Notes under the pieces: model-generated
Told to the model about the DNA's origin: nothing
Databases searched by the model: none
The model's input: only the letters and a program-made list of their open reading frames with translations
Assembly (NCBI GenBank): GCA_021797735.1
Contig: JAJZZE010000035.1
Coordinates: 1-36,225, forward strand
Origin: Thermoplasmata archaeon
GTDB lineage: Archaea > Thermoplasmatota > Thermoplasmata > Thermoplasmatales > Thermoplasmataceae
Direction: 5' to 3'
DNA length: 36,225 nucleotides
In this document: piece after piece, positions 1-34,062 of the stretch
Layout: every line of letters starts with the position of its first letter
How positions within the stretch are numbered: the stretch's first letter is position 1
Translations under genes and position numbers: made by a program

Positions 1-1
1 G

Positions 2-67
2 ATAACAGATCTATTTGGTGATTTCATCAAGAGATATGAGGATAAAACATTGAATTTGAGGTGGTAA
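2..67 (+). CDS. C-terminal end of an unidentified gene (partial)
   Basis: An open frame enters from the left edge and ends at a TAA, giving the last 21 residues (ITDLFGDFIKRYEDKTLNLRW). The tail is charged and ends in an aromatic residue. It is too short to assign to a family, and whether it is really coded cannot be shown from this window alone. Confidence 0.35.
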   Translation: MTDLFGDFIKRYEDKTLNLRW

Positions 68-108
68 TAATGTAAAAAAGTAAATTGGCAAATCGCACTA
101 TGGCACAT

Positions 109-1371
109 TCATTTGGCGAAGTCAAGTGAATAACGTCTTCCACCCCGCTGTGGCAGCCACCTTGCCGTTCCCGGGGGTGGTATAATACGGTCGGGTTCCT
201 GGCTGTGAAGGGGGAAAAGAATGTCCGGCTGCACCCACTCCACCAGCTGGTTCAGATCATCAGGGCTTGCGTGTCCCCTGTTGCCAATGGACCATGATGG
301 CACATGAAGAAATTTTAACCACTCCTGTAGAACATCCCACCTGTGGTTGCGGGCTCCCGGTGGACCGTTGGCATGGAGAAAGCAGGATCCGGGGCCTACT
401 GGCAGATCCAGTAACCATGGCAAGAATTCCGGTGTTACCTGGAGTATAAAATTTGATGGATTGCCACGTATTGTCGCCACATCAACATCACTGCCAAATT
501 CCAGTATATCGTGAAAACCCCATGTTTTAAAGAGAGTAGCCATATTCTCAGGCCATATAATTTTCCTTCCAGCTTTCTTTGCTATATTCAGAAATGATTC
601 AACACGTTCCAGGTCTCTGTGGTATAACGACATAAGAACCAGCCCCGGTGTATCCCTTAATGCATCAGCAAACAGTTTATCAACCGTACTCTCAAAACGT
701 GGTGCCTCGCGGAAACCGGCTGATAGAGTAGTTCCCTCAATCACAAGTGCACGTGCCCCGTGAACCGCACGGGCAAAACTCTCACTTAATTCCGGATGCC
801 TTCCATGAAGGCGGATATCACCGGTAAAGGCCACCACACCATCCTCCGTCTCAACGGCATACCCTGAAGCACCAATGACATTGTGGTCAACAGGGTAACG
901 TGTAATCCTGAATGGCCCAAAGGTGACAGGATGCTGTTCCTCCACTGGAATTGGTGTTCGTGAATATCCCTCCAGGGTCTCACCTGCATGGGCCAGTGCA
1001 TCCATCAAACGGGCTGTTTCCGGTGAGCTGTATATGGGAATAGCCGGATCTATCCAGCCTATTAATCCAATATGGTCAATGTGGGCATGTGAAATAAATA
1101 CCGCTGTGTGCTGATCCGATCCTGCAGGAAGTGGAAATCCGTGCATTGCATCCTCCCTGTAAATATGTGGCAGTGGTGGGGCCTGCCCGGTACGTAGCCT
1201 GTCATATAGAGCATATTCGGGGCGCAATGCCACTCCATGCTGAAATAATTCTGCATTCGGTGGTGTAAGGTCAATTCCAAAATCCAGAAGAACACGCCAG
1301 CCATCCTGCTCAATTAGAATTCTACTGGCACCTATAACCCCAACCCCACCCCAGAAACTAATATCTGCCAT
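109..1371 (-). CDS. MBL-fold metallo-hydrolase, RNase J/beta-CASP-like
   Basis: Probably a metal-dependent hydrolase of the metallo-beta-lactamase fold, about 420 residues. The motif HAHIDH (the HxHxDH zinc signature) lies near residue 95. It is followed by a downstream DH (PVDHN), the metal-bridging aspartate in FTGDIRLHG, an EGTTL segment and a C-terminal LHSQE, an arrangement like the RNase J/beta-CASP nucleases. A nuclease role is inferred; esterase or lactonase activity is not excluded. I chose the ATG at 1371 (MADISFW) because a G-rich ribosome site lies just upstream; an in-frame ATG at 1398 would add nine residues that look unlike the family. The gene is clearly richer in G+C than its neighbours and stands alone, which suggests acquisition by transfer. 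Confidence 0.8.
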   Translation of the reverse strand: MADISFWGGVGVIGASRILIEQDGWRVLLDFGIDLTPPNAELFQHGVALRPEYALYDRLRTGQAPPLPHIYREDAMHGFPLPAGSDQHTAVFISHAHIDHIGLIGWIDPAIPIYSSPETARLMDALAHAGETLEGYSRTPIPVEEQHPVTFGPFRITRYPVDHNVIGASGYAVETEDGVVAFTGDIRLHGRHPELSESFARAVHGARALVIEGTTLSAGFREAPRFESTVDKLFADALRDTPGLVLMSLYHRDLERVESFLNIAKKAGRKIIWPENMATLFKTWGFHDILEFGSDVDVATIRGNPSNFILQVTPEFLPWLLDLPVGPGSCFLHANGPPGARNHRWDVLQEWLKFLHVPSWSIGNRGHASPDDLNQLVEWVQPDILFPLHSQEPDRIIPPPGTARWLPQRGGRRYSLDFAK

Positions 1372-1685
1372 ACCCAATCCCCCCATTCTGTGCCACAATA
1401 TTCACGGTTATAACTGGCCAGGACATTATTTCTGATTGATGTAATGTTTTACTTATTCTACTAAGAACCATCTCTATCCCGTTATTATTTATATATTGTT
1501 TATATATCTTATGCAAATAATATATATTCTACACTATATACTATATAGACATACACAAAATTATACACATAGCTTTGTTGAAGATATTGCGGCAGACTAT
1601 ATTGCCCTCAAAAACATGGAGGCTTTCAGTAATTTATTTCTGTACACCATAGTAAAAATAATATGCTTTAATCCATTTATTTCAT

Positions 1686-24714: not shown

Positions 24715-25941
24715 TTAACTGGATGTTACAGTAGAACCTTTTGCACCTCCTGTATTGGGCAATCTTACCCTGTAGGGTTTTCTATTCTTCATAATAGAAT
24801 ATATGTGGTAAATCAGCCTCCTGGAAACAATAATATATGCCTGTTTCCTATTCTTCCCCTTATCTATTTCCCTATTATATATCATTAGGAATTCCTCATT
24901 CTTATGATTTACCAGGGATCTTGCACTTTCATAAACAGTATTGGAAAGATATGAGTTTCTTATCATGGAGAGCCCTGTTGCATAATCCTTTCCACCTGAG
25001 CCACTCATCTTCGGTGCCTTTCCACCGTAGGATTGAAGCTTTGTAGCAGAATCAAACTGTTCTATGCCACCGATCTCAGATACAATGGCAGCAGCATTTA
25101 CAGGACCAATACCATTTAGAGCATCTATTCTCTTCACATTCTCATTATCCTCAGTCAGCTTAATGATCCTCTCATCAATCTCCTTTAGCTGTTTATTCTC
25201 TGAAACAAGCCTTGCAATGTTCTTCCTTATTCTGAATGTATATATGTTATCAGTATCAGGTATGCCAACAGAGTCCCCTGCAAGTTCCATAAGCCTCTCT
25301 GCATCCTCTTTCTTATAATGGTTCCTGCTTGCTCTCTGCATTACCTTAAGTACGGTGTCCATACCTGCACTTACAATGCCGGATGGTACTGTAAATCTTT
25401 CAAGTATCGCTATGGATGTTTTAGATCCTACATCAGGGAACAGAACCGTGAATTCTGGAAATACACAGGCAAGATCACTGTTTATTATATTGGTTATTCT
25501 TGTTATATTCTTAGTTACAGAATCATGAAGCCTTGTAAGGCCTGAGGCAGTCCCTCTCCTGTGTACTGGCTTATCAAAGGCATTATGAGCCATCCATGGT
25601 GTGGATGCAAGCATTGCAGCATCCACCCTGTCAGATTTCTCCTTTCCAAGGTTTGACATCTTTCTTGCATAATCTGTTACCCTTGGATCAACATATACTA
25701 CATTATAGCCACTGTTCTCTAAAAAATAATGTACAGGTATATGGTAATTGCCTGTAGGATTCATAAATATACCCCCTATACTATCATTGTTGCTTCTCTC
25801 TATAGTCCTTAATTTCTCAAGTATTGTATTAAATCCCTTTCTGTCATTTGTTATCTGCCCTCTCCACATTACCTTTCTATCATTGTTCTGTACCTCCACC
25901 TGATGCATCCTCTGATGCGTGTCTATTCCAACTGATAACAT
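24715..25941 (-). CDS. IS110-family DEDD transposase
   Basis: Recombinase of 408 residues. The N-terminal RuvC-like DEDD domain shows VGIDTHQRMHQVEV (D), PTGNYHIPVHYFLE, VDPRVTDYARKM and EKSDRVDAAMLAS (final acidic pair). The C-terminal Transposase_20 domain reads RIDALNGIGPVNAAAIVSEI (helix-hairpin-helix), then SYGGKAPKMSGSGGK, carrying the conserved serine. The gene is complete and apparently functional. In this family the enzyme is guided by a bridge RNA made from the non-coding end of the element. Here the structured end lies upstream of the gene, as in the IS110 group rather than the IS1111 group. Confidence 0.93.
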   Translation of the reverse strand: MLSVGIDTHQRMHQVEVQNNDRKVMWRGQITNDRKGFNTILEKLRTIERSNNDSIGGIFMNPTGNYHIPVHYFLENSGYNVVYVDPRVTDYARKMSNLGKEKSDRVDAAMLASTPWMAHNAFDKPVHRRGTASGLTRLHDSVTKNITRITNIINSDLACVFPEFTVLFPDVGSKTSIAILERFTVPSGIVSAGMDTVLKVMQRASRNHYKKEDAERLMELAGDSVGIPDTDNIYTFRIRKNIARLVSENKQLKEIDERIIKLTEDNENVKRIDALNGIGPVNAAAIVSEIGGIEQFDSATKLQSYGGKAPKMSGSGGKDYATGLSMIRNSYLSNTVYESARSLVNHKNEEFLMIYNREIDKGKNRKQAYIIVSRRLIYHIYSIMKNRKPYRVRLPNTGGAKGSTVTSS

Positions 25942-26165: not shown

Positions 26166-26249
26166 GTTACCAAAGGTGCATCTAAATAATAAAAAAATAA
26201 AATATATAATTAAGCAGAAAAAGAATTTTCGAGGTATATAGTAGGAATG

Positions 26250-26580
26250 GGAAATATATGAGGAAGAAAAATAATAGATGATGCAGTAAATACATTAGAA
26301 ATGGCTATAGAAAAATATGGTAAACTGGAAGAAATATTAATAGATCGTTGAGCACAGTTTTTTCAAATGATAAAAATGGTTTAAGAAATAAGAATAAATT
26401 CCAACAGTACTTAGATAATAATGGAATTAAACACATATTAAGAATGATAGATCATTCAATAGTAAATTAGAAAAGTTAAACTATATAATTAAAAGATTGG
26501 GATCTTATTTTATAACATGGGATGAGGTAATATATTACTATAATTATAGGAGAAGGTATATGAGGAAAAGTGGGAACTAA
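26250..26580 (+). pseudogene. Decayed integrase-fold (IS481/IS3-like) transposase
   Basis: Frames together read IIDDAVNTLEMAIEKYGKLE then EILIDR, a stop, AQFFSNDKNGLRNKNKFQQY, LDNNGIKHILRMIDHS and NSKLEKLNYIIKRLGSYF, ending with TWDEVIYYYNYRRR. This is the order of the rve catalytic core (D in the tDrGtqF motif, NGKxE near the end) but with at least two frameshifts and stops, so it is inactive. Start and N-terminal part are missing. Confidence 0.75.
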
Positions 26581-26610
26581 TTTCAGGATATCACGCACAA
26601 TCTTTATGAT

Positions 26611-26803
26611 ACTATGGCGATCATTAAGCGTTATTTCTTTTGCAAGAAAATTGATAGGGGGTTCATAATTTTCCTGATTCTTTTGGAAGAAGTAGTGTAA
26701 TGAGGCTTACATAACACGTAAATTTGAATTATAAACCTCGTGAATTTGCTGGTCCGCAGTGCATATAGGAGTCAAAATTCCAACGCCAAATGATCGCCAT
26801 AGT
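26611..26803. mobile_element. 193-bp MITE-like element with 15-bp terminal inverted repeats
   Basis: ACTATGGCGATCATT at 26611-26625 is exactly complementary to AATGATCGCCATAGT at 26789-26803, with weaker similarity continuing inward (GCGTT). The element is flanked by a perfect 6-bp direct repeat, TATGAT, at 26605-26610 and 26804-26809, which is the expected target duplication. It encodes nothing of its own. It ends only about 13 bp before the cas operon box A. Confidence 0.8.
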
Positions 26804-26848: not shown

Positions 26849-27598
26849 ATGAGAGTTAAAATTGTATTACATTTTAAAGGAGACTTAAAATTACCAATTT
26901 CATATAATAATTTAATACAGGGATTAATTTATTCACATGTATCCGATACAAATAAACGAGATATTTTGCATAATTATGGATATATGGTGGGGTCTAAAAA
27001 AATTAAATTAATGACATTTTCTAGACTTTTGGGTGAATATGAAATTAATTCAAAGGAAATTACATTTCGCTCACAAATTACTCTTATATTTTCTTCATTT
27101 GATGATGAACTTGTATCAGATATATCTTACAATTTAATGAAAGATAAAAATATGTATTTAAATGGCTGTAAATTAGATGTGTTTAGCGTCCAACCATATT
27201 TTTTTGACATTGAAAAATATGTAAACAGAAAAAGTTATGTTATTGAAATGTTAAGCCCGCTATCAGTATCTTCCACAAATCAAGATGGGAAAAGAGTTTA
27301 TTTTAAACCAGATACTATAGAATTTGTAGATGCGTTGAGAAAAAACATAAAAACAAAACTTAAAGCAATTAAACAGGAAAACAAAGAATTCTCTTTTAAT
27401 ATTATGTATAACAATATACCTAATCACAGAGATGAAAAAGTTATATATTTTAAGAATACTTTCATTAAAGGTTATAATGGAATATTTACAGTAAATACTG
27501 ATCCGTTTATAATGAAATTGTTATACTATTCTGGTATAGGATCCAAGAATTCTGAAGGATTTGGCTGTTTTAATATACTGGGGATTAAAAATGATTAA
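26849..27598 (+). CDS. cas6: Cas6 CRISPR RNA endoribonuclease
   Basis: Cleaves the CRISPR precursor transcript within each repeat to make guide RNAs. The 249-residue protein has the tandem ferredoxin-like layout. The C-terminal glycine-rich loop, GIGSKNSEGFGCFNI (about 230-244), is the family mark, preceded by the FIMKLLYYSG strand. PISYNNLIQGLIYSHVSD lies near 17-34, where the catalytic histidine of many Cas6 proteins falls. It is the first gene of the operon and overlaps cas8b by 8 nt. Confidence 0.9.
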   Translation: MRVKIVLHFKGDLKLPISYNNLIQGLIYSHVSDTNKRDILHNYGYMVGSKKIKLMTFSRLLGEYEINSKEITFRSQITLIFSSFDDELVSDISYNLMKDKNMYLNGCKLDVFSVQPYFFDIEKYVNRKSYVIEMLSPLSVSSTNQDGKRVYFKPDTIEFVDALRKNIKTKLKAIKQENKEFSFNIMYNNIPNHRDEKVIYFKNTFIKGYNGIFTVNTDPFIMKLLYYSGIGSKNSEGFGCFNILGIKND

Positions 27599-29442: not shown

Positions 29443-30369
29443 ATGGAAAACAGTATAAAAAATGGTGAAATATTATTTATTTATGAGGCAAAGTTAACAA
29501 ATCCAAACGGTGATATAGATGATGAAAACAGACCAAGGATGGATTATGATTCATCAACAAATCTTGTTTCAGATGTGCGTCTAAAAAGGTATATACGTGA
29601 CTATTTAAAAGATTCTGGAAAAAATATTTTCATAGATCATGGTAATTTTGGAACGGCCACAGAGAAATTAAATACAGAGCTAGAGAAAAATAATTATAAG
29701 CTAAAAGAAATTATGAAGGATGGTAAAAAAAGCATAGATTTTGTGACAAAAAATTATGAGGATATCAGATTATTTGGTTCTATGATTCCAATAAAAAGTG
29801 AAAAAAATGAAAAGAAAGGTACTAAACAAGGTGATATTACGAATGATTCAGAAAAAGATGAAAACAATGGAGACTCAATTAGAATAGTAGGTCCAGTTCA
29901 GTTTTCATGGGGGTATTCACTAAATAAAGTGCAGCTTTTGAATTCATATTCAATTACTGGTGGATTTACCAGCAGTTCAGGAAAGAAAAATAACTCCATT
30001 GGAAAGGATTACAGGTTATATTATTCCCTTATTGCTTTTTATGGAATAATAAATAAACATCGTGCTAAACTGTCCGGTTTAACAGAAAATGATATAAATG
30101 ATTTGGACGATGCAATGTTAAATTCCATTCAAGAACAGGCATCAAGAAGCAAAATAAACCAGATGCCAGTTTTTTATTTGAGGACATCTTCAGATAATAG
30201 ACTTCTTGGCGACTTAAGAGATTATTTAAAATTTCAAGTAAACAACGATCCGGTCAGGAATATAAAAGATTACAGTCTGGATGTAAAAGAACTTGAATCT
30301 GCCCTGAAAAATAACGGTATTGAAAAAGCAAAAATGTGGAAACATGAAAACTTGGATTTAATAGAGTAA
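29443..30369 (+). CDS. cas7: Cas7 (Csh2-type) backbone subunit
   Basis: Forms the helical backbone of Cascade along the guide RNA. The 308-residue protein begins MENSIKNGEILFIYEAKLTN, followed by PNGDIDDENRPRMD, the NPNGD..D..RP motif typical of Csh2. SDVRLKRYIRDYL and DIRLFGSMIP follow, then a lysine-rich low-complexity loop near 110-140 and IVGPVQFSWGYSLNKV. The ATG at 29443 is chosen because GGAGGAT lies 5-10 nt upstream, at the end of cas8b; it starts one base after that gene's stop. Confidence 0.92.
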   Translation: MENSIKNGEILFIYEAKLTNPNGDIDDENRPRMDYDSSTNLVSDVRLKRYIRDYLKDSGKNIFIDHGNFGTATEKLNTELEKNNYKLKEIMKDGKKSIDFVTKNYEDIRLFGSMIPIKSEKNEKKGTKQGDITNDSEKDENNGDSIRIVGPVQFSWGYSLNKVQLLNSYSITGGFTSSSGKKNNSIGKDYRLYYSLIAFYGIINKHRAKLSGLTENDINDLDDAMLNSIQEQASRSKINQMPVFYLRTSSDNRLLGDLRDYLKFQVNNDPVRNIKDYSLDVKELESALKNNGIEKAKMWKHENLDLIE

Positions 30370-30377
30370 GGGTAATT

Positions 30378-31136
30378 ATGAAAATACTTGTCTTTGATCT
30401 GTTTGGCAAGTTTGCATGCTTCCGTAAAATATATACCAACACATCAACAAGGTCTTATCTTTATCCGCCAAGAACTACAATTTCTGGAATAATAGCAGCC
30501 ATTCTTGGAATGGATTTTGATTCGTATTATACAAAATTTAATCTTGAAAACTCAATTATTGGTATATCAATTATTTCTAAAAATAGAACAATAGTACAAA
30601 ATATTAACTACATTAAAATTAAAACAGAAAGTGACATTTTAAATTTGGATACTAAAGGATATAAATATACACAGATTCCAACAGAAATTATAATACCAGA
30701 AAATTTTTCAAAAAATATACATTTTAGGATTTTCTTTCATTCAAACGATGGTAATGTAATGGAGGAACTTAAACGTAAATTAATTGATAATAACCCATAT
30801 TATCCAATATCCTTGGGATTTGCAAACATGCTTGGTTATTCTAAGTTTATAGATGAAGGTGAATATTGTAAAACTGAAAGCCATGACTTTATACCAATTT
30901 CTTCACCAGTGTCACTTGACTCTATAGAAAACATCCACTTAAATGGCGAAATTATGAAGGATATCCTGCCGTTATTTTTTGATGAGAAAAGGATCCCTCA
31001 TACAAAAGAGTATATATTTGAACGAAACGGTCATACCATGGAGGTAAAAACAAACAAAAAAATAATTAAAGTAAGTTATAAAATAGATGGACATGAATAT
31101 GTAGATAACCTTATTCTACCAGAGGTGAGCGAGTAA
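30378..31136 (+). CDS. cas5: Cas5 (Cas5h/I-B) subunit
   Basis: Caps the 5' handle end of the guide RNA in Cascade. The 252-residue protein begins MKILVFDLFGKFACFRKIYT then SYLYPPRTTISGIIAAILG, the usual Cas5 N-terminal ferredoxin fold that recognises the repeat-derived tag. It starts 8 nt after cas7 behind a GGGTAA ribosome site. Its TAA stop shares its last base with an ACG that is in frame with cas3, where ATG would be expected. Confidence 0.9.
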   Translation: MKILVFDLFGKFACFRKIYTNTSTRSYLYPPRTTISGIIAAILGMDFDSYYTKFNLENSIIGISIISKNRTIVQNINYIKIKTESDILNLDTKGYKYTQIPTEIIIPENFSKNIHFRIFFHSNDGNVMEELKRKLIDNNPYYPISLGFANMLGYSKFIDEGEYCKTESHDFIPISSPVSLDSIENIHLNGEIMKDILPLFFDEKRIPHTKEYIFERNGHTMEVKTNKKIIKVSYKIDGHEYVDNLILPEVSE

Positions 31137-33559
31137 CGGAATATCTTTCACATAGATGGATAGATAATGATAGTTATCACTCTAGGAAGCTTTCAAGGCA
31201 TTTGCTGGAAGTTGGCAAGTCTACTGTAGATTATACCAAAATAGCAAGCACAGAAGAAAATGATTACTTTATAAAATCAGCTTTTTTGATTGGAGCCTTA
31301 CACGATTTTGGCAAATATACGACATATTTTCAAAAATACCTGATAGGAAAAATGGATAAGGGGTATAAACAAAAATTTAAACGGCATGCATACATATCTG
31401 CATTATTTGCATCTTACTGTGGCAAGGAAAATAATTTGCCTGAAAATTATCAACTATATATCTATTTTTCAATAAAACATCATCATGGCAATCTCTGTAA
31501 TTTCGATGAGGATATTGGTCGAGAATATTATAATGAGGTTCTGGATCCAAACATGAATGAAAATATAAAAATTTTAGAGGCACAGTTATGTGATATTTCG
31601 AAGCAAAAAACAGATATTTTATCAGATATGAATTTAATAGTAGAGGCTGGACAAGAATATGGTTTAAAAATTAACGTCCTTGATAAATTTATAAATTCTT
31701 ATAAAGATTATTTTGATTATCTTGTGAGTATAAATGAAAAACTCATTAAATATGATATGTTTGATAAATTAAATTTGGATGCTAATGAACTTATGCTTCT
31801 TTATTCGTCCTTAATAGATAGTGACAAAAGAAGCGCGGCGAGTATAGAATCATATCACAGACAGGACATAAAATCAGAGTATATAGAAAAATATAAAGAA
31901 ATTAATTTTACCGCTAATACTTTACCAATTCATAGATTAAGGAACTCATTATATATAGATGTCAAGAAAAACATTGAGAGCGTAGATCTAAAATTGCATT
32001 TCTTTACAATTACGGCGCCTACTGGAGCAGGTAAAACTATTGCTGGTATGCTTGCAGCCTCTTTTTTGGCAGAAAAATTGCAAACAATTTATAAAAAGCA
32101 ATTTAGAATTATATATACCATGCCATTTACAACATTAATTGATCAGAACTATCTAGTAATAGATAAAATCCTGAAAGAAAATATAGATAATTATGAAAAT
32201 GACAGAGAGAGATATCTCATTAAACATCACCATCTTAGCATTTCTAATCAAATTGTTAATTCGAATGAACTTCCGTTGGATCAAAGCCTCATGCTGGTAG
32301 AATCCTGGGATTCAGAAATAATAGTTAGCACATTTGTACAGCTATTTAGTGCCATCGCTGGATTTAAAAATAAGAATCTGAAGAAGTATCATAATATATA
32401 TAATTCCGTAATAATTTTAGATGAAATTCAGAGTATTGAGGTTGAGAAATGGGAAGAAATTAAGTTTTTACTTAAAATGGCTGCAAGTAAAATGAATGTA
32501 TATATTATATTGATGACTGCTACACAACCAGAAATAATCCCAGAAGCTATAGAGCTTGGTGGTAATGTCAAGAAAAGGTTTCAATCTCTTAATCGTGTAG
32601 ACATGCACCCAAATTTAACACAACTGACACCAGAAGATATAATAGAAGAATATATAAACAAGATCAGTGATAGTTCCATTTTATTTATGTTTAATACGAT
32701 AAAGTCCTCTATCCGTGCCTATGATTATTTAAAAAAAATTAAAGAGAGACAATGGAAAATATATTATTTATCAACAAACATTATACCAAATCAAAGAACT
32801 AAGCGTATAGAGGAAATTATACGTTCCTTAAAAGATAATAAGAAAACTATTGTAGTATCAACACAAATTTTTGAGGCTGGCATTGATATAAGCTTTCATG
32901 CAGTTGTAAGAGATATTGCACCGATAGATTCAATTATACAATCGAGCGGTAGGGTAAATAGAAATATGACAATGCAAAAGGGTAATATTTACATTGTTAA
33001 CTGTTCTCCTGAAAATGGCCATGATGGATACTACTCAAGAAAAGTATATGGAAAAATACATACTGATACAACCCTTGAAATATTAAAACAGAAAAATGCA
33101 GTAATTCAAGAATCGGAATACCTAGACTTGATCAAGGAATATTATAATAAAGTAAAAATAAATATAAATTCGACAACAAATTTAGATGATGCCTTTAAAA
33201 ATTTAAGATTTAGCGAGGACAAAAAAAACTTCTGCATATCAGATTTTTCAATTATCTCTGATAGTGACAAATATATAAGTTTATACATAGCTATAGACAG
33301 AAGTTCTGAAGAGCTTTTAGAAAATTACATAAATAGGAATAAAACCAGTGAGAATTATAACAGTGAAGAAGCAATAAAACTTAAAAAGGATATATATAAA
33401 TATATTATTTCAGTAAGACCTAATCAACTAAGTAATATAAACTATGAAAAATTAAACAAATTTGCTAATTTTTATGTTATTAGAAATAGTTATGTTTCAC
33501 AATATTATGATAATGAAACAGGGCTTAAAGAAAATGGAGAGGGGATTATTGAAATATGA
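31136..33559 (+). CDS. cas3: Cas3 HD nuclease-helicase (start codon apparently ACG)
   Basis: Degrades target DNA recruited by Cascade. Counted from ACG at 31136 (807 residues), the HD domain has H22 (SRHLLEVGK), LHDFGK (H56, D57), KRHAYIS (H84) and IKHHHGN (115-117). The helicase has APTGAGKT (294-301), LDEIQ (429-432), LMTATQP and SSGRVNRN. No ATG, GTG or TTG precedes TTG at 31202 in this frame, yet starting there removes H22, a metal ligand. The layout TAACG after a GAGGTGA ribosome site looks like a normal TAATG junction with the start codon mutated. It may still be read inefficiently from ACG. It overlaps cas4 by 4 nt. Confidence 0.85.
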   Translation, partial: TEYLSHRWIDNDSYHSRKLSRHLLEVGKSTVDYTKIASTEENDYFIKSAFLIGALHDFGKYTTYFQKYLIGKMDKGYKQKFKRHAYISALFASYCGKENNLPENYQLYIYFSIKHHHGNLCNFDEDIGREYYNEVLDPNMNENIKILEAQLCDISKQKTDILSDMNLIVEAGQEYGLKINVLDKFINSYKDYFDYLVSINEKLIKYDMFDKLNLDANELMLLYSSLIDSDKRSAASIESYHRQDIKSEYIEKYKEINFTANTLPIHRLRNSLYIDVKKNIESVDLKLHFFTITAPTGAGKTIAGMLAASFLAEKLQTIYKKQFRIIYTMPFTTLIDQNYLVIDKILKENIDNYENDRERYLIKHHHLSISNQIVNSNELPLDQSLMLVESWDSEIIVSTFVQLFSAIAGFKNKNLKKYHNIYNSVIILDEIQSIEVEKWEEIKFLLKMAASKMNVYIILMTATQPEIIPEAIELGGNVKKRFQSLNRVDMHPNLTQLTPEDIIEEYINKISDSSILFMFNTIKSSIRAYDYLKKIKERQWKIYYLSTNIIPNQRTKRIEEIIRSLKDNKKTIVVSTQIFEAGIDISFHAVVRDIAPIDSIIQSSGRVNRNMTMQKGNIYIVNCSPENGHDGYYSRKVYGKIHTDTTLEILKQKNAVIQESEYLDLIKEYYNKVKININSTTNLDDAFKNLRFSEDKKNFCISDFSIISDSDKYISLYIAIDRSSEELLENYINRNKTSENYNSEEAIKLKKDIYKYIISVRPNQLSNINYEKLNKFANFYVIRNSYVSQYYDNETGLKENGEGIIEI

Positions 33560-34062
33560 CCTATGATTTAAATATAAATGGGACTATGATATGGTATTAT
33601 TATATCTGTAAACGCGAAGTATGGCTTATATCCCACTCAATAGAATCAGACCAGGACGATGAAAATATTCGTATAGGTAAGGAGTTGCATGAAAATGCAT
33701 ACAATAAAGAAAGTAAGGAAATTAAGGAAAACCATTCTATAATGGATATGATAAAGGATGTTAATGGCCATCTTCTTATTGTAGAAGTAAAAAAATCAAG
33801 CAAAACTGCTGAAGCTGCAAAAATGCAATTATTGTATTACATGTTAGAATTAGAATTGGACGGGAACGGGATAAAGCCTTATGGTGAACTTAGATTTCCA
33901 CTTGAAAAGAAAAAATTAAAGGTTGAGCTGACTGATGAAAATAGAAAAGAATTAGAAAAAACTATTAACAACATTAACGAAATCATAGGTGGTGATATCC
34001 CAAAATTAATTAAAAATCCACACTGTAAAAATTGTTCATATTCAGAATATTGCTGGGCGTGA
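33556..34062 (+). CDS. cas4: Cas4 RecB-like nuclease
   Basis: Trims prespacers and helps choose those with a correct PAM before integration by Cas1-Cas2. The 168-residue protein has the four cysteines for an iron-sulphur cluster: C18 (YICKREVW) and C157, C160, C166 (HCKNCSYSEYC). The RecB nuclease core shows IVEVKKS near 75-81 and KMQLLYYML near 91-99. Its ATG overlaps the cas3 stop (ATGA), showing coupled translation. It lies directly before cas1, the usual order in adaptation modules. Confidence 0.92.
   Translation: MTYDLNINGTMIWYYYICKREVWLISHSIESDQDDENIRIGKELHENAYNKESKEIKENHSIMDMIKDVNGHLLIVEVKKSSKTAEAAKMQLLYYMLELELDGNGIKPYGELRFPLEKKKLKVELTDENRKELEKTINNINEIIGGDIPKLIKNPHCKNCSYSEYCWA

What the first reader, a model, noticed from the sequence alone, without database searches (positions are those of the whole stretch)
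31109..31204. cas3 appears to start at ACG; the next start would delete a catalytic histidine
The cas5-cas3 junction reads TAACG behind a GAGGTGA ribosome site, exactly like a TAATG stop-start overlap with T changed to C. The frame has no other start until TTG at 31202, which falls immediately after H22, the first metal ligand of the HD nuclease. Either ACG is used as a weak start, throttling interference while adaptation genes stay expressed, or this locus has lost effective Cas3. The coding sequence itself is intact, so the change would be recent or selected.
Basis: partly seen in the sequence, partly recalled or inferred. Interest (0 to 1): 0.7.

Follow-up and report, generated by a model that had tools for sequence, protein, structure and literature searches.

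The report
Ferroplasma cas3 with an ACG start
In one draft Ferroplasma genome the gene for the DNA-shredding enzyme of its CRISPR system has ACG where every relative examined has a normal start codon, behind an unusually strong ribosome-binding site, so the enzyme is either made in small amounts from a very rare start codon, has just been lost, or one base of the draft is wrong.

Summary
The type I-B cas3 frame (open 31109-33556) has no ATG/GTG/TTG before TTG 31202, just after His22, an invariant HD-nuclease residue. ACG (31136-31138) lies exactly where the nearest orthologues (49-52% identical) have ATG; all 60 Cas3 relatives examined have a conventional start upstream of that histidine.

The ancestral junction was probably not TAATG. 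Relatives have a 20-nt cas5/cas3 overlap. Here one extra base just after GAGGT shifts cas5 into an early TAA that overlaps ACG, and extends the Shine-Dalgarno sequence to GAGGTGA (-11.7 kcal/mol against -7.0 to -8.9 in orthologues; matched by 1 of 192 host genes). The old cas5 tail is still readable in another frame. The C of ACG is the wobble base of an old cas5 Asn codon.

Best reading: ACG is a weak start, partly rescued by the strong SD and termination-reinitiation, giving little full-length Cas3. Nearly as likely: a recent knock-out of interference, or a wrong base in a draft genome. No reads or close relatives were available. "Adaptation genes stay expressed" is doubtful, because cas4 overlaps the cas3 stop. 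Unusual starts are not a habit of this genome.

The parts
26849..27598 (+). cas6
   Evidence: TIGR01877, 106 bits
27591..29441 (+). cas8b (Csh1/TM1802 family); start ATG 27591 is my choice over the listed TTG 27561
   Evidence: PF09484, 237 bits
29407..30369 (+). cas7 (Csh2); the ATG at 29443 may be the true start
   Evidence: TIGR02590, 193 bits
30378..31136 (+). cas5b, C-terminus shortened: ends PEVSE where relatives end PEVASNEFLFP
   Evidence: TIGR02592; tail comparison
31122..31128 (+). extended Shine-Dalgarno GAGGTGA, which contains the site of the extra base relative to orthologues
   Evidence: -11.7 kcal/mol against the anti-SD read from the host's own 16S 3' end; 1 of 192 host genes as strong
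31136..31138 (+). ACG at the ancestral start position of cas3
   Evidence: aligned with ATG of three orthologues
31136..33559 (+). cas3 (HD nuclease plus helicase), 807 codons counted from ACG
   Evidence: TIGR01587 152 bits, TIGR01596 71 bits; no internal stop
31129..31155 (+). relict of the old cas5 C-terminal tail (ASNGISFT-stop) in another frame; its TAG 31153-31155 is at the same offset as the cas5 stop of the relatives
31199..31201 (+). His22, first conserved HD-domain histidine
   Evidence: invariant in 14 relatives
31202..31204 (+). TTG, first conventional start; would remove His22; weak SD (-2.6 kcal/mol)
33556..34062 (+). cas4, ATG overlapping the cas3 stop (ATGA)
   Evidence: TIGR00372, 102 bits
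34069..35061 (+). cas1b
   Evidence: TIGR03641, 433 bits
35055..35327 (+). cas2
   Evidence: TIGR01573, 37 bits
35565..36225 (+). CRISPR array, 10 identical 30-nt repeats GTTACTAGTCTTTCTATAAGGGTTTGAAAT with distinct 36-39 nt spacers, cut by the contig end

Best explanation
The C at 31137 is real and ACG is a weak but used start for full-length Cas3. Shown: ACG occupies the ancestral ATG position; an unusually strong Shine-Dalgarno sequence lies 7 nt upstream; the cas5 stop overlaps ACG by one base; the rest of the frame is intact. Inferred: ribosomes finishing cas5 at TAA are held by the 7-base SD pairing and shift to ACG; the initiator Met-tRNA pairs with two of its three bases, so initiation succeeds rarely and still inserts methionine; the product is an 807-residue Cas3 with all HD ligands, at low level. 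Also inferred: the one-base insertion that created GAGGTGA and moved the stop onto the start accompanied, and partly offset, the loss of ATG.
For: Position aligned residue for residue with ATG in orthologues and modal start position in 60 relatives. SD -11.7 kcal/mol against -7.0, -7.0 and -8.9 in the three orthologues, and only 1 of 192 host genes with a conserved ATG is as strong. Other in-frame near-cognate codons before His22 (ATA 31160, AGG 31184, AAG 31187) have SD energies of -2.1 or weaker, TTG -2.6. Conserved H6, W8, R17, L19 and H22 are retained between ACG and TTG and the 816-codon open frame has no stop. It is the only Cas3 and only Cas3-type HD domain found in the genome, beside an intact adaptation module and array. 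Literature: suboptimal starts tend to go with stronger SD (PMC5622118); overlapping stop/start pairs reinitiate in archaea and bacteria (PMC10666635); non-AUG reinitiation is reported in viral stop/start overlaps in eukaryotic systems (PMC2793014); regulated non-canonical starts exist in bacteria (sigR, infC; PMC5472188).
Against: ACG gave only about 0.1-1.5% of ATG in an E. coli reporter series in which several other codons scored unexpectedly high (PMC6925171), and archaeal aIF1 disfavours non-canonical starts (PMC6237735). No archaeal ACG start was found in my literature searches. The strong SD would equally suit an ordinary TAATG junction if the base were T. No second copy of the locus is available, and no expression data.
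Confidence: 0.4

Rival explanations
1. Sequence or assembly error: the true base at 31137 is T (and perhaps the extra base near 31127 is also wrong). Cas3 starts at an ordinary ATG.
For: Draft genome in 57 contigs; the window is a whole contig ending inside the CRISPR array. One base makes the difference, and two departures from the relatives lie about 10 nt apart. With T the junction would be an ordinary, efficient TAATG behind a strong SD.
Against: The sampled host genome shows no sign of poor base quality: a handful of frameshift-like or stop-containing conserved genes out of about 250, several of them mobile or repetitive, only moderately above the complete Fer1 control, and only one other doubtful lost start in 257 ortholog pairs. 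The extra base is not in a homopolymer and builds a coherent SD and stop overlap.
Confidence: 0.31
2. Recent loss of function: ATG became ACG, Cas3 is essentially no longer made, and the system keeps (or is losing) its other parts. Coding sequence still looks intact because the loss is recent.
For: ACG is a very poor start in E. coli. The next conventional start removes invariant His22. Loss of type I interference by mutation is common (general knowledge). T to C was probably synonymous in the old overlapping cas5 frame.
Against: The SD was strengthened, not decayed. All cas genes are intact and repeats identical. No convincing self-targeting spacer was found that would mark a dead interference step (array incomplete).
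Confidence: 0.26
3. Cas3 is made from TTG 31202 (or ATA 31160) as a shortened protein; with TTG it would be a helicase lacking the first metal ligand, unable to shred DNA normally.
For: TTG is a legitimate start codon.
Against: Very weak SD for both (-2.6 and -2.1 kcal/mol); TTG deletes invariant H6 and H22, ATA deletes H6 and W8. No relative among 60 starts after the first histidine.
Confidence: 0.03

Closest known systems
Type I-B cas5-cas3 junctions of Ferroplasma acidarmanus Fer1 and two other Thermoplasmatales (L010/L043, L009, L011/L044)
   Same: Adjacent cas5-cas3, same Cas3 N-terminus (MNFYSHKW), GAGGT ribosome-binding site inside the cas5 PEV codons
   Different: They start at ATG with a 20-nt cas5/cas3 overlap; here ACG, one extra base, a 1-nt TAA/ACG overlap and a longer SD
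Genes with regulated non-canonical starts: E. coli infC (ATT), Streptomyces sigR (GTC)
   Same: A codon outside ATG/GTG/TTG at a conserved start position, expected to give low, factor-sensitive translation (PMC5472188)
   Different: Those are experimentally proven; here a single draft genome, ACG, archaeal, no expression data
Termination-reinitiation gene pairs of archaea and bacteria
   Same: Stop and start overlap by one base; reinitiation strongly favours overlaps (PMC10666635)
   Different: The start of the second gene is not a conventional start codon
Viral stop/start overlaps that tolerate non-AUG restart (murine norovirus VP2)
   Same: Reinitiation at non-AUG codons next to a stop is reported (PMC2793014)
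   Different: Eukaryotic ribosomes tethered by an RNA element; here SD pairing on an archaeal ribosome; an analogy only

Membership tests
Type I-B CRISPR-Cas system | cas6-cas8b-cas7-cas5-cas3-cas4-cas1-cas2 gene set with I-B type families | tested here: met
   Csh2 and Cas1b families above curated cut-off, Cas5h marginally above; Cas8b/Csh1 slightly below its NCBIfam cut-off but far above Pfam's for TM1802
Type I-B CRISPR-Cas system | adjacent CRISPR array | tested here: met
   10 identical 30-nt repeats with distinct spacers
Cas3 HD nuclease-helicase | HD-domain residues (first His, HD, further His positions) and helicase motifs in one reading frame | tested here: met
   H22, H56, D57, H84, H116, H117 invariant in 14 relatives; cas3_HD and cas3_core over cut-off
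Cas3 HD nuclease-helicase | conventional start codon upstream of the first His (usual, but not defining for the protein family) | tested here: not met
   none in the window; present in all 60 relatives examined. Family membership of the encoded protein stands
Cas3 HD nuclease-helicase | DNA-degrading activity in vivo | not testable with these tools
   needs expression and interference assays
Genes with functional non-canonical starts (infC/sigR-like) | non-canonical codon at the conserved start position with SD at normal spacing | tested here: met
Genes with functional non-canonical starts (infC/sigR-like) | the unusual codon is conserved among relatives | tested here: not met
   orthologues have ATG; no closer relative carrying the locus was found
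Genes with functional non-canonical starts (infC/sigR-like) | protein shown to start there | not testable with these tools
   needs N-terminal proteomics or a reporter
Termination-reinitiation pair | stop and start overlapping or within a few nt | tested here: met
   TAA 31134-31136 / ACG 31136-31138
Termination-reinitiation pair | translation of the second gene depends on translation of the first | not testable with these tools
   needs a reporter with premature stops in cas5

The most novel reading that the evidence does not exclude
An archaeal CRISPR effector nuclease is held at low level by an ACG start codon that works only through termination-reinitiation behind an extra-strong Shine-Dalgarno sequence: translational rationing of Cas3 by start-codon choice, sensitive to the start-fidelity factor aIF1, and a first clear archaeal ACG start.
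Probability: 0.15. Interest if true: 0.75.

Novelty: new variant of a known kind. Interest (0 to 1): 0.42.

Why it matters
If ACG is used, it would be a natural archaeal example of a start codon outside ATG/GTG/TTG and a simple way to ration the most dangerous enzyme of a type I CRISPR system; gene callers would place the start at TTG and wrongly report a Cas3 lacking its first metal ligand. If the base is real but Cas3 is not made, it is a clean snapshot of interference just lost while the rest of the operon is intact. If it is an error, it is a reminder that single-base start anomalies in drafts need reads first.

Tried and rejected
Scans of genome contigs and viral contigs with the window's Cas3 alone found no relative; a profile scan found 63 loci, the best being the same distant orthologues. 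A junction pattern allowing either pyrimidine at 31137 found nothing in viral contigs. Other Ferroplasma genomes searched have no closer copy of the locus, so C versus T could not be checked in a close relative. RNA structure at the junction is not significant (z = -0.81). Fusion of Cas5 and Cas3 by frameshifting: rejected, no slippery sequence seen in the overlap by eye. A second Cas3 or separate Cas3 HD protein in the genome: none found. Genome-wide use of odd starts: not seen (my first comparison was too noisy to use and was replaced by the filtered one). The first junction table read minus-strand loci in the wrong orientation and was replaced. Self-targeting spacers: none convincing; partial matches in the own genome are mostly repeat remnants. 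Structure prediction was not run, since it would not give metal distances or settle the start codon. The primary paper on all 64 start codons in E. coli is not held, so values are quoted from papers that cite or resemble it.

Full report
What is there. The window is a whole contig (C47) of a 1.97-Mb, 57-contig genome. The right end carries a complete type I-B operon, cas6-cas8b-cas7-cas5-cas3-cas4-cas1-cas2, followed by a CRISPR array of 10 identical repeats cut by the contig end. One cas3, one Cas3-type HD domain and one cas1 were found in the genome.

The anomaly. cas5 ends in TAA (31134-31136) and the cas3 frame continues through ACG (31136-31138). Between the in-frame stop 31106-31108 and TTG 31202 there is no ATG, GTG or TTG. 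TTG follows His22 directly. His22 is invariant among 14 relatives, as are H56, D57, H84, H116 and H117, which matches the metal-binding pattern known for Cas3 HD nucleases (family knowledge; the PDB searches support the family but I did not map His22 onto a solved metal site). A protein started at TTG would lack it.

ACG is at the ancestral start. The three closest orthologues (49-52% identical) read MNFYSHKW (MNFFAHKW in one); the window reads TEYLSHRW with T = ACG, without a gap. In 60 wider relatives a conventional start lies upstream of the first histidine; 56 have one within 10 codons of the SH motif (43 ATG, 7 TTG, 6 GTG), 35 of them at exactly the ACG position, 4 codons before SH. The automatic scan flagged three loci as lacking a start; reading their sequences showed that each has an ATG.

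How the junction changed. In the three orthologues cas5 runs on past the cas3 ATG and ends PEV-ASNEFLFP, PEV-AENEFLFS or PEV-DSNEFFCS, overlapping cas3 by 20 nt. In the window an extra base follows GAGGT (GAGGT-T-GCG against GAGGTGAGCG). As a result cas5 ends early (PEVSE-stop) and its TAA falls on the first base of ACG. The old tail is still readable in another frame as ASNGISFT-stop, with its TAG at the same offset as the cas5 stop of the relatives. In that old frame the C of ACG is the third base of the Asn codon (AAT to AAC), so the change that destroyed the cas3 ATG was probably synonymous in cas5. The order of the two changes is unknown, and the alignment rests on only three diverged orthologues.

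The ribosome-binding site. The same insertion extends the SD to GAGGTGA. Pairing with the anti-SD read from the host's own 16S 3' end gives -11.7 kcal/mol, against -7.0, -7.0 and -8.9 in the orthologues. Of 192 sampled host genes with conserved ATG starts only one is as strong; the median is -2.0. Spacing to ACG is 7 nt. TTG 31202 and the other near-cognate codons have -2.6 or weaker. This is what one expects if a weak start is compensated (trend reported in PMC5622118), but a strong SD would also suit a normal TAATG junction, so it argues for function at this site more than for C over T.

Is it a habit of the genome or of the assembly? In 257 filtered ortholog pairs, a conservative filter (12 or more aligned residues before the first conventional start, 35% identical) flags two genes in this genome: one doubtful case (L142:11470) and one start-choice artefact; neither has a clear ACG start, and cas3 itself falls just below that filter because its N-terminus is diverged. 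Frameshift-like breaks and internal stops in conserved genes are few: excluding one mobile element counted repeatedly, four frameshift-like genes among 269, against one in 249 in the reverse comparison, and 11 against 5 genes with internal stops, several multiply broken. So the assembly is not visibly poor, but an error at a single base cannot be excluded.

Interpretation. I rank use of ACG as a weak, reinitiation-dependent start at 0.40, a sequence error at 0.31, recent loss at 0.26 and a shortened protein at 0.03. These are judgements, not computed probabilities. Reported ACG activity in an E. coli series is 0.1-1.5% of ATG (PMC6925171); aIF1 works against non-canonical starts in archaea (PMC6237735); overlap of stop and start favours reinitiation (PMC10666635); non-AUG reinitiation at stop/start overlaps is documented in eukaryotic viral systems (PMC2793014).

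Spacers give no help: no convincing full-length match to the host's own genome was found, and matches in relatives are mostly repeat-derived or short. The array is truncated, so this is weak evidence.

Verdict. The case stands or falls on the reads at 31137.

Noticed in passing
window 1-1400: A metallo-beta-lactamase-fold gene on the minus strand (109-1398) in sequence of about 49% G+C, much richer than the rest of the contig and with bacterial-looking protein sequence; horizontal transfer or a chimeric contig end.
   Followed up: partly
window 26611-26632 and 26782-26803; L238: A 22-nt inverted-repeat pair just upstream of cas6; a similar sequence sits beside a lone CRISPR repeat on another contig (C43, L238), suggesting a small mobile element associated with CRISPR loci.
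   Followed up: partly
L124:19726-19827 (contig C9), L238 and L239 (contig C43): A two-repeat mini-array and single repeats with a variant of the window's repeat (around TTTAGTCTATCTATAAGGGTTTGAAAT) elsewhere in the genome, with no second cas1 or cas3 found.
   Followed up: partly
window 33556-33559: cas4 starts in an ATGA overlap with the cas3 stop, so adaptation genes may be translationally coupled to cas3.
   Followed up: no
L142:11470-12670 (contig C27, + strand): Another gene whose first conventional start (codon 36) lies inside the region conserved with Fer1; possible lost or unusual start, or a diverged paralogue (44% identity).
   Followed up: partly
window 24715-25941 and 26200-26600: A transposase-like gene (resembling IS110 by eye) and broken transposase-like pieces directly upstream of the cas operon.
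   Followed up: no
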